A stretch of 33,983 nucleotides of DNA from a bacterium (GTDB lineage: Bacteria > Patescibacteriota > Doudnabacteria > UBA920): positions 1 through 33,983 of the forward strand of contig JAJYWK010000066.1 in NCBI GenBank assembly GCA_021791515.1, written 5' to 3'. Shown piece by piece: positions 3,626-29,970 of the stretch. Position 1 is the first letter of the stretch, and each line of letters opens with the position of its first letter. The notes beneath the pieces are model-generated. The model saw nothing but the letters and a program-made list of their open reading frames with translations. It made no database searches and had not been told where the DNA came from. Position numbers and translations under genes: made by a program.

Positions 3626-4426
3626 ATGAAAATAGGAATTTTTGATTCCGGCCTTGGCGGACTGGCTATTGCCAAAGCGGCTTTTAAAGCTCTGCCAAAG
3701 TACGACTACATTTACTTGGGCGATACAAAAAATTTGCCTTATGGGCAAAAGTCGCCGCAGGAAATTTACCGCCACACACAAAAGGCGGTGGAATTTTTGT
3801 TTGCGCAAAACTGCCAGCTCATAATTATAGCCTGCAACACTTCTTCGGCCTGGGCTTTGCGCAAAATTCAGCAGGAATATTTGCCCAAAGCCTATCCCAA
3901 GAGGCGGGTTTTAGGGGTGATTATCCCAACACTGGAAGAAGCCGATTACCAGCACCGCCGCAAAAAAATCGGAGTCATCGGCACAACCGCTACGGTTAAA
4001 TCGCACATCTACAAAAAAGAATTAATAAAAATCGATTCTTCGGCCAAGATATACGAATTGGCAACTCCGCGCCTAGTGCCGCTCATTGAGCAAAATGCTT
4101 TACAAAAAGCAGTAAAAAGCTTAGAATTATACTTGAAACCGCTCCAAAAACAGGGGATTGAAGCGCTGGTTTTGGGTTGCACTCATTACCCGTTTTTAAA
4201 AAATGAATGTAAAAAAATACTTGGCAAGGAAGTGGCCATTGTTAGCCAAGACGAGATTATCCCAAAAAAGCTCGGGAAATACTTAAAAAGACACCAGGAA
4301 ATAGAAAATAAATTGGGGGAATCACGGTCCAGAAATTTTTTTGTAACAAAGCTGAATAAGGATTTTGAAGAAGTGGCCAAAAGACTGTTCGGGAAAAAAA
4401 TAAAGTTTGAATTAGCAAAATATTAG
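3626..4426 (+). CDS. murI: Glutamate racemase
   Basis: 'IGIFDSGLGGLAIAKA', 'YLGDTKNLPYGQKS', 'IACNTSSAWAL', 'LGCTHYPFLK' motifs. Confidence 0.95.
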   Translation: MKIGIFDSGLGGLAIAKAAFKALPKYDYIYLGDTKNLPYGQKSPQEIYRHTQKAVEFLFAQNCQLIIIACNTSSAWALRKIQQEYLPKAYPKRRVLGVIIPTLEEADYQHRRKKIGVIGTTATVKSHIYKKELIKIDSSAKIYELATPRLVPLIEQNALQKAVKSLELYLKPLQKQGIEALVLGCTHYPFLKNECKKILGKEVAIVSQDEIIPKKLGKYLKRHQEIENKLGESRSRNFFVTKLNKDFEEVAKRLFGKKIKFELAKY

Positions 4427-4484
4427 ACAAATAGGACTTGTGCGCCGTATGCGACTGATAGGTCTTGTCTGAATAATATTTTCT

Positions 4485-4563
4485 GCCGACGTAGCTCAAC
4501 TAGTACCTGCCCGCAACGCCTCGCAAGCTCGGCTTGCGTGGCAGGCGGGGAGCAACGGTATCG
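4485..4563 (+). pseudogene. tRNA-Thr-like 5' half (copy A) interrupted in the D-loop by a palindrome
   Basis: GCCGACG-TA-GCTC-AACTAGTA [4506-4549 palindrome] GAGC-A-ACGGTATCG, ending within the anticodon and followed by CCGCCCG. Confidence 0.7.
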
Positions 4564-4607
4564 CCGCCCGCAACGACTTCGCGACTAATAATTTGATGTT
4601 TTATGTT

Positions 4608-4642
4608 GCCGGCTTAGCTCATCTGGTAGAGCAGTGGTATCG
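4608..4642 (+). pseudogene. tRNA-Thr-like 5' half (copy B)
   Basis: GCCGGCT-TA-GCTC-ATCTGGTA-GAGC-A-GTGGTATCG, then CCCC... Confidence 0.75.
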
Positions 4643-4660
4643 CCCCGTCGAATCTGATGC

Positions 4661-4736
4661 GCCGAGATAGCTCAATTGGTAGAGCAGCGGTATCGTAAAC
4701 CGCAGGTTGGAGGTTCGATTCCTCTTCTCGGCTCCA
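4661..4736 (+). tRNA. tRNA-Thr (CGT), intact
   Basis: Complete cloverleaf: GCCGAGA/TCTCGGC acceptor, anticodon stem GCGGT-ATCGTAA-ACCGC, T-arm GGAGG-TTCGATT-CCTCT, encoded CCA. Confidence 0.93.
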
Positions 4737-4748
4737 GATTCAACGGGG

Positions 4749-4835
4749 TAAATAAACCTCTATTTTAGGTTCAAGCTTGCCCCGTAGCGATTGAACGAAG
4801 CGAAATCTGCTACCGGGGTCCGACAGCCGGCTCCA
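4749..4835 (+). pseudogene. tRNA-Thr-like 3' half (copy B) with a palindrome (4780-4818) in the T-arm
   Basis: Starts TAAATAAACC; ends TCCGAC-AGCCGGC-T-CCA; AGCCGGC is the exact complement of copy B acceptor GCCGGCT. Confidence 0.6.
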
Positions 4836-4889
4836 TGAGACATTAAATATAATTATAATCTCATTAGGGTCGTTGCGAAGTCGGGCGGG

Positions 4890-4930
4890 TAAACCGTAGG
4901 TTAAGGGTTCAAATCCCTTCTTCGGCTCCA
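4890..4930 (+). pseudogene. tRNA-Thr-like 3' half (copy A)
   Basis: TAAACCGTAGGTTAAGGGTTCAAATCCCTTCTTCGGCTCCA, preceded by CGGGCGG, which complements CCGCCCG after the copy A 5' half. Confidence 0.7.
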
Positions 4931-4992
4931 GGCGATAGGCAGGCGGGGCAGCGGCAGCGGCCCCGAAGTACCTGCTTCGCAGGACTACGGGG

Positions 4993-5042
4993 TAAATATC
5001 GTAAACCGCGGGTTGGAGGTTCAATTCCTCTTCTCGGCTCCA
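4993..5042 (+). pseudogene. tRNA-Thr-like 3' half (copy D)
   Basis: TAAATATCGTAAACCGCGGGTTGGAGGTTCAATTCCTCTTCTCGGCTCCA directly after palindrome CCCCGAAGT...ACTACGGGG (4961-4992). Confidence 0.7.
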
Positions 5043-5054
5043 GAAAGTGTGGGG

Positions 5055-5100
5055 TAAAGTAAACCATAGGTTATCGGTTCAATTCCGATCGTCGGCTCCA
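5055..5100 (+). pseudogene. tRNA-Thr-like 3' half (copy E)
   Basis: GGGG|TAAAGTAAACCATAGGTTATCGGTTCAATTCCGATCGTCGGCTCCA. Confidence 0.7.
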
Positions 5101-5112
5101 CAAGCGACGGGG

Positions 5113-5170
5113 TAAACAGGTTGGAGGTTCCCTGCCTGCCGGCAGGCAGGAAGTCCGACAGTCGGCCACA
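5113..5170 (+). pseudogene. tRNA-Thr-like 3' half (copy F) with a palindrome in the T-loop
   Basis: GGGG|TAAACAGGTTGGAGGTTC[CCTGCCTGCCGGCAGGCAGG]AAGTCCGACAGTCGGC. Confidence 0.55.
5131..5150. repeat. Dispersed palindrome CCTGCCTGCCGGCAGGCAGG
   Basis: Perfect 20-bp palindrome; identical copies at 13767-13786 and 15418-15437. Confidence 0.95.
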
Positions 5171-5255
5171 GATTCAGCGAGGTAATAAACTGTGCCTAAA
5201 TTCGGATCTAGAACGAATTGGCGGAAAAAGTCAAGGCCTGAAAAAAACGCTAGTC

Positions 5256-5284
5256 TTGACAAAATTTAGAAAATTTCCTATTAT
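5256..5284 (+). promoter_or_regulatory. Sigma70-like promoter of the ATP synthase operon
   Basis: TTGACA - 17 nt - TATTAT, 18 nt before the first ORF of the operon. Confidence 0.7.
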
Positions 5285-5301
5285 TTAAGCGGAAAACTGG
5301 C

Positions 5302-5580
5302 ATGGACGAAATTAAACCAGAGACTAATCAGAATAAACAAAAAAATCCTGAACAAAAGCTTTTTGCCATGCTTATGCTGGAAGCCGGGATAGAGTTTGTC
5401 GTCTTGATTGCCGGCCCCCTGATTTTAGGAATTTTAGGCGGAAAATGGCTGGACAACAAGTACCATCAGAACTTTTTTGTCATCATCGGAATCTTACTTG
5501 GCTTAGGCATAACCTGCGTTGCTGTTTATAAAAGAATATTAGATTATAAAAAGATTTTGGAAAGCAAGAACAAAAAATAG
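5302..5580 (+). CDS. AtpI/AtpZ-like F0F1 ATP synthase assembly protein
   Basis: Two-TM 92-aa protein 'GPLILGILGGKWLDNKYHQNFFVIIGILLGLG', immediately upstream of atpB. Confidence 0.7.
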   Translation: MDEIKPETNQNKQKNPEQKLFAMLMLEAGIEFVVLIAGPLILGILGGKWLDNKYHQNFFVIIGILLGLGITCVAVYKRILDYKKILESKNKK

Positions 5581-14895: not shown

Positions 14896-14950
14896 TGCGG
14901 GATAGAGCAATTGGCATCCGCCTTAGGCGGATCATAACCCTCTAAGTAGT
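14896..14950 (+). pseudogene. Disrupted 5' copy of initiator tRNA-Met
   Basis: TGCGGGATAGAGCAATTGGCA[TCCGCCTTAGGCGGA]TCATAACC; the first 21 nt match the intact tRNA at 15192 except position 1. Confidence 0.8.
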
Positions 14951-15229
14951 ATGTTTGAGGTTTACGTAATCCAAAATCCTAAAGGCACTTTATACACCGG
15001 TTTTACCTCAAATCTGGCTGCCAGATTAGCTGAACACAATACTGGAAAACCTGGAAACTATACTTATAAGCGTGGTCCTTGGAAACTTATACATAAAGAA
15101 ATTTATGAGTTCAAAGACGAAGCTTCTAAAAGAGAAAAGTTCCTCAAATCAGGAAAGGGGAGAGAATTTATTAAAAGCTTCGTGATAATATCGCGGGATA
15201 GAGCAATTGGCAGCTCGCAAGGCTCATAA
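14951..15229 (+). CDS. Small GIY-YIG family nuclease; C-terminus runs into the tRNA
   Basis: 'VYVIQNPKGTLYTGFTSNLAARLAEHN', 'EASKREKFLKSGKGREFIKS'; stop TAA lies in the anticodon loop of the downstream initiator tRNA. Confidence 0.88.
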   Translation: MFEVYVIQNPKGTLYTGFTSNLAARLAEHNTGKPGNYTYKRGPWKLIHKEIYEFKDEASKREKFLKSGKGREFIKSFVIISRDRAIGSSQGS

Positions 15230-15267
15230 CCTTGAGGTTCCCGGTTCGAGTCCGGGTCCCGCAACCA
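15192..15267 (+). tRNA. Initiator tRNA-fMet (CAT)
   Basis: C1xA72 mismatch (CGCGGGA/TCCCGCA), anticodon loop CTCATAA, encoded ACCA; close to the E. coli tRNA-fMet layout. Confidence 0.93.
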
Positions 15268-15395
15268 AGCTAGTTTTGTATGCCTAAGCATAAAAAATTG
15301 ACCGGGTTTAAACCTAAAATCGTGACAGATTTTACCCTCTGTTCGAGGGTTTTAAAATATATAGCGCGGCAAACTTGTCCGGCTGCGCAAAGCGT

Positions 15396-15451
15396 GACGG
15401 GATAGCTCAGTTAGTTACCTGCCTGCCGGCAGGCAGGGATCGTGGGATTCA
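15396..15451 (+). pseudogene. tRNA-like 5' half with a palindrome in the D-loop
   Basis: GACGGGATAGCTCAGTTAGTTA[CCTGCCTGCCGGCAGGCAGG]GATCGTGGGATTCA, then GCCCGCACTAAATTT. Confidence 0.6.
15418..15437. repeat. Dispersed palindrome CCTGCCTGCCGGCAGGCAGG
   Basis: Third identical copy in the window, inside a tRNA D-loop. Confidence 0.95.
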
Positions 15452-15498
15452 GCCCGCACTAAATTTTTACAATCAATTTTCTACCGTGGTCTTTTGGG

Positions 15499-15575
15499 GC
15501 CGGAGTAGCTCAGTTAGTTAGAGCGTGGGACTCATAAGCCCAAGGTCAGAGGTGCAATTCCTCTCTCCGGCACCA
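15499..15575 (+). tRNA. tRNA-Met (CAT), elongator (tRNA-Ile2 not excluded)
   Basis: GCCGGAG/CTCCGGC acceptor, TGGGA-CTCATAA-GCCCA, AGAGG-TGCAATT-CCTCT, encoded CCA. Confidence 0.9.
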
Positions 15576-15614
15576 TGAGCCCGCGGTATGGATAGAAATT
15601 TAGTGCGGGCCGAG

Positions 15615-15655
15615 TAAGCCCAAGGTCAGAGGTGCAATTCCTCTCTCCGGCACCA
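15615..15655 (+). pseudogene. Exact 41-nt duplicate of the tRNA-Met(CAT) 3' half
   Basis: TAAGCCCAAGGTCAGAGGTGCAATTCCTCTCTCCGGCACCA, identical to 15535-15575. Confidence 0.9.
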
Positions 15656-15679
15656 AAGTGGTCTAAATAAGTTAAGACT

Positions 15680-15809: not shown

Positions 15810-15898
15810 GGGACCGTAGCTCAATTGGTTACCCGCCCGAACGTACCGCTCGGTACGGGCGGGGAGCACCCGCCTGTCACCAAAGAGGTTAAAAGCAA
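15810..15898 (+). pseudogene. Disrupted 5' copy of tRNA-Asp
   Basis: GGGACCGTAGCTCAATTGGTTA[15832-15863 palindrome]GAGCACCCGCCTGTCAC then CAAAGAGGTTAAAAGCAA; matches intact tRNA-Asp at 16134 outside the insert through the anticodon loop. Confidence 0.85.
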
Positions 15899-16156
15899 AT
15901 GTATACCGTATACGTATTAAAAGATAAGCTGGGAAACCTATATAAAGGCTTTACTAGCGATACCGAAAGGAGAATTAAAGAGCATAAATATGGCAAGACC
16001 AAAACGACCAGAAAAATGGAAAATCTTCAAATTATTTACACCGAAAACTTAAATTCCAGACTTGAGGCCAGAAAAAGAGAAAAATATTTAAAGTCAGCCG
16101 CAGGAAGAAGATTCCTAAAATCAATAGGTATATGGGACCGTAGCTCAATTGGTTAG
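15899..16156 (+). CDS. Small GIY-YIG family nuclease; C-terminus runs into tRNA-Asp
   Basis: 'VYVLKDKLGNLYKGFTSDTERRIKEHK', 'EARKREKYLKSAAGRRFLKS'; stop TAG lies in the tRNA-Asp D-loop. Confidence 0.88.
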   Translation: MYTVYVLKDKLGNLYKGFTSDTERRIKEHKYGKTKTTRKMENLQIIYTENLNSRLEARKREKYLKSAAGRRFLKSIGIWDRSSIG

Positions 16157-16210
16157 AGCACCCGCCTGTCACGCGGGAGGTTACGGGTTCGAGCCCCGCC
16201 GGTCCCGCCA
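16134..16210 (+). tRNA. tRNA-Asp (GTC)
   Basis: GGGACCG/CGGTCCC acceptor, CCCGC-CTGTCAC-GCGGG, encoded GCCA. Confidence 0.93.
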
Positions 16211-17724
16211 GATTTCCGCGCTGGAACTTGCATAGTTGCGAGAGAATTTGGAGCTTCAGCGCGAGAATCTTCCGAAACTTTTGAGGTTTGCAAATCTACA
16301 ATACAGTCAAACACTGGCGTCCATTTGGGCACCAGTTTTTGGTTTGTGTGGACGAAACCTTCAAAGCAGAGCTTAATGATGGTGCGTTTTTGCATGACGC
16401 CGGATTTTTCGTAAAGAAGGTCAGCGTGGTCGTTAAAATTCAGCAGGTCGTTGAATGCTTGCACAAACTTGTCGGACTGGCTTTCCAGGTCGGCCAGCCG
16501 CTCCTGGTAGACCTGCTTTTCCCGCAGCAGCTCGTCCTGTGCCTTCAGAAAAATCTCGGCATCGATTAACCTTTTGGATCGATCCATAACCAGATTGCGG
16601 ATCTGCTGCTGGATTTTGACCAGTTCCTGCTTAATGCTTTTACGCTCCAGTTCTTCGTTGGTCAGCCTCGTCTTGGCAAAGTGCTGAAAGTAGGCATCCA
16701 TAGTCTTCTTCATTTTGCCCGGCAGCTGCACCCGGGACAGGAAAGCCAAAACTTGCGGTTCGATTTCTGTATCTTTAGAGTACCGCTTTTCCGGACAATA
16801 AATGTCGCGCCTCTTGGTGCAGCTGTAATACAGGTGACCTTTTTTAAGTTGTCCCACCATAGCCGAGCCGCAGTGGCCGCAGCGGATGTAACCAGACAAG
16901 GGGTAAATGTGCTTGCGGGTGCGGTCTGCATAATGGTTTCTCTCCTGGATTTTTTCCTGCACGTCGTCAAACAACTTTTTGGAAATAAGTGTCGGAAAGC
17001 TGGCCTGGGCAGTGCCGTACGCTGTCTTTATAAGGCCGTAGTAGATGGGATTGCCCAAAATGTGCTCTATTGTCCTCCGGCCGACTGGTGTGCCGCCCCT
17101 TGCCCGAAAGCCCCGCTCGTTAAGCAGCACGGCCAATGCCTCATAGCCGTACTTGCCGGTGGCGTAAAGATCAAAGGCTTGTTTGACGAACTTTGCCCGG
17201 GTATGGTCTATGGTTAAAAGCTTGGTCTTTTTATCGTTAAGATAGCCAAGCGGCGCCACTCCCGGAAAGCGGCCGCGCTCTACCGCTTCTTTCAATCCCT
17301 TTTTAACCTCCCAACTGATGTTCTGGCTCGTCCACTGGGCAATCGATGCCATAATATTCTCCACCAACTCTCCGGAAAAGGATTCGTCAAACTGCTCAAC
17401 CACCGAAATGACCCTGACATCGTGCTTTTTAAGCATCATTTTAATGGCGGCGTAGTCAGCGACATTGCGGCAGAGCCTGTCCAGCTTATGGACTAAGATG
17501 ACATCGACCTTGTCGTCAATTTTTGCCCTGTGCAGCATTTTTTGCAGCTGCGGACGTTCGGCCGTCCTGGCCGATTCGCCGCGCTCCTCAAAAACATTCT
17601 CCGGCAAGGAATGCCAGGCATGCTCAGTGGCATACTTTTGGCAGGCTTTTATTTGCGCCGGAATGGATAATTCACGTTCTGCCTGCCGGGTCGTGGACAC
17701 CCGGCCGTAAATAAGGTAGTTCAT
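16153..17724 (-). CDS. Large serine recombinase/integrase
   Basis: 'YGRVSTTRQAERELSIPAQ', 'VHKLDRLCRN', recombinase domain, zinc ribbon 'CGHCGSAMVG...YYSCTKR...C'; C-terminal 'GGARTRNLPRDRRVL' is antisense tRNA-Asp. Confidence 0.93.
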   Translation of the reverse strand: MNYLIYGRVSTTRQAERELSIPAQIKACQKYATEHAWHSLPENVFEERGESARTAERPQLQKMLHRAKIDDKVDVILVHKLDRLCRNVADYAAIKMMLKKHDVRVISVVEQFDESFSGELVENIMASIAQWTSQNISWEVKKGLKEAVERGRFPGVAPLGYLNDKKTKLLTIDHTRAKFVKQAFDLYATGKYGYEALAVLLNERGFRARGGTPVGRRTIEHILGNPIYYGLIKTAYGTAQASFPTLISKKLFDDVQEKIQERNHYADRTRKHIYPLSGYIRCGHCGSAMVGQLKKGHLYYSCTKRRDIYCPEKRYSKDTEIEPQVLAFLSRVQLPGKMKKTMDAYFQHFAKTRLTNEELERKSIKQELVKIQQQIRNLVMDRSKRLIDAEIFLKAQDELLREKQVYQERLADLESQSDKFVQAFNDLLNFNDHADLLYEKSGVMQKRTIIKLCFEGFVHTNQKLVPKWTPVFDCIVDLQTSKVSEDSRAEAPNSLATMQVPARKSGGTGGARTRNLPRDRRVL

Positions 17725-29722: not shown

Positions 29723-29890
29723 AAACAAAAAGGCCCCCACCAGGAGCTCGACCCTTTCGGGCCGAACGCACGGGTTTCCCCATGCGACCAGCAAAGGAAC
29801 CCTGGCGAGGGTTTCTCTATCCTTTGCTGGTTTGGCTACCGGAGCAGCCAGTTGCCATGCCCGAAGCCTGTAAGGCCTGCGGGTTTAGGC
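29723..29890 (-). ncRNA. Candidate structured RNA/leader upstream of the 55-aa ORF
   Basis: Hairpins ACCAGCAAAGGA...TCCTTTGCTGGT, GGCTGC-TCCG-GTAGCC, CCCG...CGGG; ends GGGGGCCTTTTTG on the minus strand. Confidence 0.45.
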
Positions 29891-29970
29891 GAATTTAGTT
29901 GTTAACTTAATTTTAACACAAATCAGGTAAAATAAAAACGAATTTTTGGTAAAATTTTTTCAAAGTTATT

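What the first reader, a model, noticed from the sequence alone, without database searches (positions are those of the whole stretch)
4736..5170. Five tRNA-Thr 3' halves, each starting right after a GGGG- or CGGG-ending palindrome arm
3' halves at 4749, 4890, 4993, 5055 and 5113 are each immediately preceded by ACGGGG, GGCGGG, ACGGGG, TGGGG and ACGGGG and each starts TAAA (anticodon position 36 onward). The 5' halves end GGTATCG followed by CC(C)C. Only two 5' halves are present, so three 3' halves are unpaired. Copy E's acceptor (CGTCGGC) is the exact complement of 5' half A (GCCGACG), so trans pairings are possible on paper. The shared junction argues for a site-specific process rather than random decay.
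Basis: partly seen in the sequence, partly recalled or inferred. Interest (0 to 1): 0.75.

Follow-up and report, generated by a model that had tools for sequence, protein, structure and literature searches.

The report
tRNA genes nested inside tRNA genes
In this uncultured Doudnabacteria genome many tRNA genes have been broken by small inserted elements that each carry a working replacement copy of the same tRNA, so the five 'tRNA halves' are layers of a Russian doll with one working gene at its centre.

Summary
The tRNA-Thr pieces are real, but they are a nested stack rather than trans-acting half genes. A native-type tRNA-Thr(CGU) (5' half 4608-4642, 3' half from 4753) is split at 35^36 and holds an intact, non-native tRNA-Thr (4661-4736) inside an inverted repeat. 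Outer layers surround it: 4485-4563 with 4890-4930, then remnants at 4997, 5059 and 5117. Relatives have one uninterrupted native tRNA-Thr at this locus (the empty site), and another Doudnabacteria MAG (L016) has the same native gene split at the same bond around a different tRNA-Thr. The 'TAAA' after GGGG is usually the end of the inserted element, so the 3' junctions are not uniform. The phenomenon is genome-wide: 19 of 46 tRNAs here, 17/36 and 11/40 in two relatives, have pieces of the same tRNA type beside them, with inserts almost always in tRNA loops. At five tRNAs here, and in other families of the phylum, a small GIY-YIG nuclease gene lies behind a tRNA 5' fragment and in front of the intact tRNA. 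Best reading: selfish elements invade tRNA genes and supply the replacement tRNA, probably by GIY-YIG homing (inferred). I found no earlier description in the open papers searched.

The parts
4661..4736 (+). intact tRNA-Thr(CGT), innermost layer 'C'; only intact Thr-CGT gene found in the genome; not the native lineage type
4643..4656 (+). left inverted-repeat arm CCCCGTCGAATCTG of the element carrying C
4737..4752 (+). right arm GATTCAACGGGG plus element end TAAA
4608..4642 (+). 5' half of native-type tRNA-Thr 'B', ends at anticodon position 35
4753..4775 (+). 3' part of B (position 36 to T loop)
4776..4818 (+). palindrome in the T loop of B (similar insert at the same point in L016)
4819..4835 (+). 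3' end of B, TCCGACAGCCGGCTCCA, identical to native
4485..4505 (+). 5' part of outer tRNA-Thr 'A'
4506..4549 (+). palindrome in the D loop of A
4550..4563 (+). A continued, ends at position 35 (GGTATCG)
4564..4585 (+). left arm of the insert in A
   Evidence: (I3)
4869..4889 (+). right arm GTCGTTGCGAAGTCGGGCGGG
   Evidence: (I3)
4890..4930 (+). 3' half 'X', likely partner of A
4931..4960 (+). possible degraded 5' remnant of copy 'D'
   Evidence: weak, by eye
4961..4996 (+). palindrome CCCCGAAGT..ACTACGGGG plus TAAA inserted at 30^31 of D
4997..5042 (+). 3' part of D, 96% identical to C
5043..5058 (+). arm GAAAGTGTGGGG plus TAAA
5059..5100 (+). orphan 3' half 'E' (acceptor CGTCGGC)
5101..5116 (+). 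arm CAAGCGACGGGG plus TAAA
5117..5166 (+). orphan native-like 3' piece 'F' with T-loop palindrome 5131-5150
15384..15656 (+). same phenomenon: tRNA-Met (15499-15575) in an inverted repeat inside the anticodon loop of a broken tRNA-Met with a D-loop palindrome
14897..15267 (+). tRNA-Met 5' piece, GIY-YIG ORF 14951-15229, intact tRNA-Met 15192-15267
15810..16210 (+). tRNA-Asp 5' half with D-loop palindrome, GIY-YIG ORF 15899-16156, intact tRNA-Asp 16134-16210

Best explanation
The cluster is a nest of insertions into one essential gene. A short mobile element, carrying a complete tRNA-Thr(CGU) between two complementary arms (typically CCCCG-N..N-CGGGG with TAAA at one end), inserted into the anticodon loop of the resident tRNA-Thr. 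It destroyed that gene and replaced its function with its own copy; the broken outer copy then decayed, collecting further palindromes. This happened more than once at this locus. Shown from sequence: the nesting, the intact inner copy, the empty site in relatives, a second occupied allele, insertion almost always in loops, and the same pattern at many other tRNAs. Inferred: the elements move by homing. A small GIY-YIG endonuclease cuts the tRNA gene in a loop, repair copies the element in, and the carried tRNA (or missing tRNA part) keeps the cell alive. In the fuller form the ORF starts just behind the 5' fragment of the invaded tRNA, so it is probably transcribed from that tRNA's promoter. 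The short cassettes such as the tRNA-Thr one would then be forms without the ORF, moved in trans. The complementary arms probably help free the inner tRNA from the transcript and keep outer halves from mispairing, possibly as an RNase III-type stem (inferred).
For: Empty site: relatives L008-L027 with a tRNA upstream of atpI/atpB have one intact tRNA-Thr(CGT) there; outer copy B is 89% identical to the commonest native type while inner C is 79%. Second occupied allele: L016 has the native gene split at the same bond around another intact tRNA-Thr. Inner C groups with the inner tRNA of L031, from another family (support 0.945). Genome-wide: 19/46, 17/36 and 11/40 tRNAs with same-type pieces against 1-4% for other-type controls per flank; G019 has only one 5'-side hit among 46. 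Cleanest case: Leu-CAA at C62, outer and inner matching, insert in D loop, no duplication or deletion. Arms differ between elements yet pair: 15/21 nested against 5/25 other tRNAs with a strong leader/trailer stem, P = 0.0008. GIY-YIG: 5 of 13 small GIY-YIG genes lie just upstream of an intact tRNA on the same strand (P about 3e-10), and 7 of 55 elsewhere (P about 1e-10); catalytic-type residues conserved. In L111, L115, L116, L127, L154 and L155 the order is tRNA 5' part with a loop palindrome, ORF, intact tRNA. Precedent: SegB, a GIY-YIG enzyme, cuts inside tRNA genes and amplifies them (PMC13096335).
Against: The tRNA-Thr cluster itself has no GIY-YIG gene, so its link to homing is by analogy. 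The arms and the TAAA end are not explained by homing; they resemble REP or IS200/IS605-type palindromes, and the genome has three Y1 transposase genes, though I saw none beside these cassettes. Most small GIY-YIG genes (8 of 13 here) are not next to a tRNA in this orientation. No cutting, movement or expression was shown. Assignment of decayed pieces D, E and F is uncertain, and curated junctions were picked by eye.
Confidence: 0.66

Rival explanations
1. Single-strand (HUH/Y1 transposase) mobilisation of hairpin elements: REP-like palindromes with a TAAA tag insert into hairpin loops, and some captured a tRNA in their own loop.
For: Element ends CCCCG..CGGGGTAAA recur, with TAAA or TTTA at one end only; insertions are precise with no target duplication and lie in loops; CGGGGTRAA is 68 against 20 for the reversed pattern, 27 of 68 within 600 bp of a tRNA in 4% of the genome; three Y1_Tnp genes present.
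Against: Arm sequences differ from element to element, unlike a family recognised by sequence; GIY-YIG genes, not Y1 genes, are associated with the nested tRNAs; two of the Y1 genes are followed by their own, different CCCGGG hairpins.
Confidence: 0.2
2. Split or trans-spliced tRNAs, as in Nanoarchaeum: the halves are joined in trans by their complementary arms.
For: Halves end at a common bond and carry complementary G+C-rich arms.
Against: An intact Thr-CGT exists in the middle; no EndA domain in the genome; outer halves are broken by palindromes; pairing is nested in cis.
Confidence: 0.03
3. Self-splicing intron-like inserts, the outer tRNA being spliced and functional.
For: Inserts sit in loops, the outer tRNA can still fold around them, and CPR rRNA genes have many inserts (PMC11270868).
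Against: No group I or II intron match in the window or in L016 and L031; outer acceptor, anticodon or T stems are often degraded; each nest has one clean inner tRNA.
Confidence: 0.05
4. Tandem duplication of tRNA-Thr plus random insertion and decay of ordinary palindromic repeats, with no mobile tRNA.
For: Several copies in a row; palindromes are common in this genome.
Against: Exact 35^36 insertion into the native gene in two species, empty site in relatives, mirror order, loop preference, inner C unlike the native lineage.
Confidence: 0.06

Closest known systems
SegB of phages T4/T6 (free-standing GIY-YIG homing endonuclease in tRNA clusters)
   Same: GIY-YIG nuclease beside tRNA genes; SegB cuts inside tRNA genes, promotes inheritance and amplification of tRNAs, with microhomology between the tRNA 5' end and the segB 3' end (PMC2988022, PMC13096335).
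   Different: Here bacterial chromosomes, each gene inside a broken copy of the same tRNA, with the intact replacement downstream; no cutting shown; the Thr cassette lacks the nuclease gene.
Non-intron insertions in CPR rRNA genes (GIY-YIG-coding or short without ORF)
   Same: Same bacterial group; GIY-YIG only in non-intron inserts; many short ORF-less inserts; inserts often at tops or bases of stem-loops (PMC11270868).
   Different: That study does not mention tRNA, and its inserts are not reported to carry a replacement of the broken gene.
Integrative elements and phages with att sites in tRNA genes
   Same: Enter tRNA genes and restore a whole tRNA, leaving fragments (PMC9897764).
   Different: Elements here are about 100-600 nt, have no integrase, and leave both halves around an entire new tRNA.
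REP/RAYT palindromes (GTAG-tagged)
   Same: Short palindromes with a tetranucleotide at one end (PMC3733652, seen).
   Different: Different tag, arms not conserved, concentrated in tRNA genes, some enclosing a tRNA.
Fungal mitochondrial homing elements that carry a replacement gene part (from memory)
   Same: Insert breaks the gene and supplies the missing part.
   Different: Protein genes and organelles; not checked here.

Membership tests
Free-standing GIY-YIG homing elements (SegB-like) | GIY-YIG domain with catalytic Tyr, Arg and Glu | tested here: met
   14 GIY-YIG hits in the genome including UvrC; conserved Y, YxG, R and E in 11 tRNA-associated proteins
Free-standing GIY-YIG homing elements (SegB-like) | gene lies in or beside its target gene | tested here: met
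   5/13 own and 7/55 other loci; that the tRNA is the target is inferred
Free-standing GIY-YIG homing elements (SegB-like) | nuclease gene present in the tRNA-Thr cluster itself | tested here: not met
   no GIY-YIG hit between 4426 and 5302
Free-standing GIY-YIG homing elements (SegB-like) | cuts the uninterrupted allele and is copied into it | not testable with these tools
   needs purified protein and a cross
Group I/II intron | match to an Rfam intron family | tested here: not met
Split or trans-spliced tRNA | no intact gene for that tRNA | tested here: not met
   intact Thr-CGT at 4661-4736
Split or trans-spliced tRNA | tRNA splicing endonuclease | tested here: not met
   no PF01974
REP/RAYT palindromes | tag tetranucleotide beside a palindrome | tested here: inconclusive
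   TAAA at one end in many copies, TGAA or none in others
REP/RAYT palindromes | linked Y1 (RAYT) transposase | tested here: inconclusive
   three Y1_Tnp genes, none seen next to a tRNA cassette
tRNA-site integrative element | integrase gene and attL/attR direct repeats | tested here: not met
   no recombinase-sized ORF in 4426-5302; a serine recombinase lies at 16153-17724, unconnected to this cluster

The most novel reading that the evidence does not exclude
A new class of minimal selfish element: a palindromic cassette whose only cargo is an essential tRNA, which inserts into loops of that same tRNA gene and survives because it is the replacement. It would turn over tRNA genes in CPR bacteria and spread between lineages, with GIY-YIG-coding relatives as the autonomous form.
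Probability: 0.4. Interest if true: 0.9.

Novelty: new variant of a known kind. Interest (0 to 1): 0.82.

Why it matters
If right, tRNA genes, usually thought of as stable, are repeatedly invaded and replaced in some CPR bacteria by elements that make themselves indispensable. It would connect the abundant small GIY-YIG genes of this phylum with a target, could explain stray tRNA fragments in annotations, and shows an essential RNA gene acting as the cargo of its own parasite. The GIY-YIG part is directly testable in vitro.

Tried and rejected
Group I/II introns and any other Rfam family: none in the cluster. Phage records: only ordinary tRNA matches. EndA: none in the genome, though it is found in archaeal controls. 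A strict phylum-wide DNA pattern for the Thr cassette found only this window, too specific to measure spread. NCBIfam gave no name for the GIY-YIG ORFs. Y1 transposase copies were read for a link to the palindromes; none clear. Antisense T-arm specificity in the T-loop elements of G019/G043 was tested and is not isotype-specific. Paper searches found no description of tRNA genes nested in tRNA genes in bacteria; the library holds open-licence papers only.

Full report
What is there. The window is contig C22 of a 1.17-Mb genome; close relatives by its ATP synthase A protein are Candidatus Doudnabacteria. Between murI (3626-4426) and the ATP synthase genes (from 5302) lies a 700-base cluster with one complete tRNA-Thr(CGT), at 4661-4736, surrounded by pieces of other tRNA-Thr copies. 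It is the only intact Thr-CGT gene found in the genome; the other two tRNA-Thr genes read TGT and GGT.

It is a nest. The native tRNA-Thr is known from relatives: where a tRNA-Thr lies upstream of atpI/atpB in L008-L027, it is one intact Thr-CGT gene, and seven of them share the same sequence, GCCGGCTTAGC...AGCCGGCTCCA. In the window this native type survives as two pieces, 4608-4642 and 4753-4835, cut at 35^36, and the intact non-native tRNA sits between them inside complementary arms (4643-4656, 4737-4748). L016 has the same native gene cut at the same bond around a different intact tRNA-Thr. The outer copy B is 89% identical to the commonest native type, the inner C 79%; C groups with the inner tRNA of L031, a genome of another family, which suggests movement between lineages, though 76-nt trees are weak.

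Further layers. Half A (4485-4563, with a palindrome in its D loop) and 3' half X (4890-4930) enclose B: arms 4564-4585/4869-4889 pair, the anticodon stem is a perfect match, and the predicted fold of 4484-4932 shows A/X, then B, then C nested (z = -7.8; B and C alone z = -5.4). Outside are D (4997-5042, 96% like C), E (5059-5100) and F (5117-5166), with no clear 5' partners; only 58 bases lie between murI and A, so their 5' halves, if they existed, are gone. This last step is inference.

GGGG or CGGG is the right arm of the insert, and TAAA is mostly its end, not the tRNA: the same CGGGGTAAA end adjoins tRNA-Ala at TATTAC, and at 4993 the tRNA resumes at TATCG after TAAA. CGGGGTRAA occurs 68 times in the genome against 20 for the reversed pattern, 27 of them within 600 bp of a tRNA, a zone of 4% of the genome.

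It is genome-wide. A test for same-type tRNA pieces beside each intact tRNA was positive for 19/46 tRNAs here, 17/36 in G043 and 11/40 in G011; control rates with other tRNA types were 1-4% per flank; G019 had 8/46, all but one only 3' pieces, mostly of another kind. Clean examples: Leu-CAA (insert in the D loop, no duplication or loss), Val-CAC, Ala-CGC, Arg-CCT and Met. Of 41 curated junctions 38 are in loops or at their edges (P about 2e-8 against 52%). The curation was by eye. Arms around inner tRNAs are complementary though different each time.

A nuclease is associated. Of 13 small GIY-YIG genes in the genome, five stand directly before an intact tRNA on the same strand: Gln, Asn, Thr-GGT, Met and Asp. 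In relatives and in other families of the phylum the same order recurs: 5' part of a tRNA with a palindrome in its D or anticodon loop, ORF start within a few bases to tens of bases, ORF, intact tRNA of the same type (L111 Gln, L115 Asn, L116 Gln, L127 Glu, L154 and L155 Cys). Catalytic-type residues are conserved. The ORF therefore sits behind the promoter of the tRNA it broke (inferred; no promoter was mapped), and its 3' end can overlap the intact tRNA (window 14951-15229 and 15899-16156).

How it probably works. Cutting of the tRNA gene in a loop, repair from a copy carrying the element, and rescue by the carried tRNA would explain the precise insertion without target duplication, the same-type rule, and the decay of outer copies. 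SegB gives an experimental precedent for a GIY-YIG enzyme that cuts in tRNA genes and multiplies them (PMC13096335; PMC2988022). The Thr cassette has no nuclease gene; that it is moved in trans, or lost its ORF, is inference. The stem could be a processing site for an RNase III-type enzyme, as considered for rRNA inserts (PMC11270868); not tested. A HUH transposase acting on hairpins is the main rival.

Limits. No expression, cutting or transfer data; one genome per species; MAG assemblies, though the pattern is repeated at many loci in independent assemblies; literature limited to open papers.

Noticed in passing
L178, L185, L186, L187, L188, L194 (G019); L158, L163, L171, L174, L175 (G043); L076 3808-4090 (own genome, Tyr): A second small element type at tRNA 3' ends: 85-180 nt downstream of an intact tRNA its last ~20 nt (from the T loop on) are repeated exactly, with a structured stretch between that often starts with the antisense of a T arm. 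No Rfam match in the loci tested.
   Followed up: partly
window 29749-29891 (-): Match to LOOT RNA (RF03000, 50.7 bits, above the cut-off) in a Doudnabacteria genome.
   Followed up: no
window 16153-17724 (-): Large serine recombinase gene whose 3' end overlaps tRNA-Asp (16134-16210) on the opposite strand, right next to the Met/Asp nests.
   Followed up: no
L039 (C21:120-420): tRNA-Val triple nest: inner tRNA-Val in the D loop of an otherwise complete tRNA-Val, itself inside CCCCGTTAAATATT/AATATTTAACGGGG and a third tRNA-Val tail.
   Followed up: partly
L064 (C63) about 1400-1800: Two direct copies of a tRNA-Asn 5' piece with the same palindrome flank the GIY-YIG gene.
   Followed up: no
L148 1425-1530: GIY-YIG ORF starting a few bases after the 3' end of a tRNA-Gln without an encoded CCA (G143, another family).
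   Followed up: no
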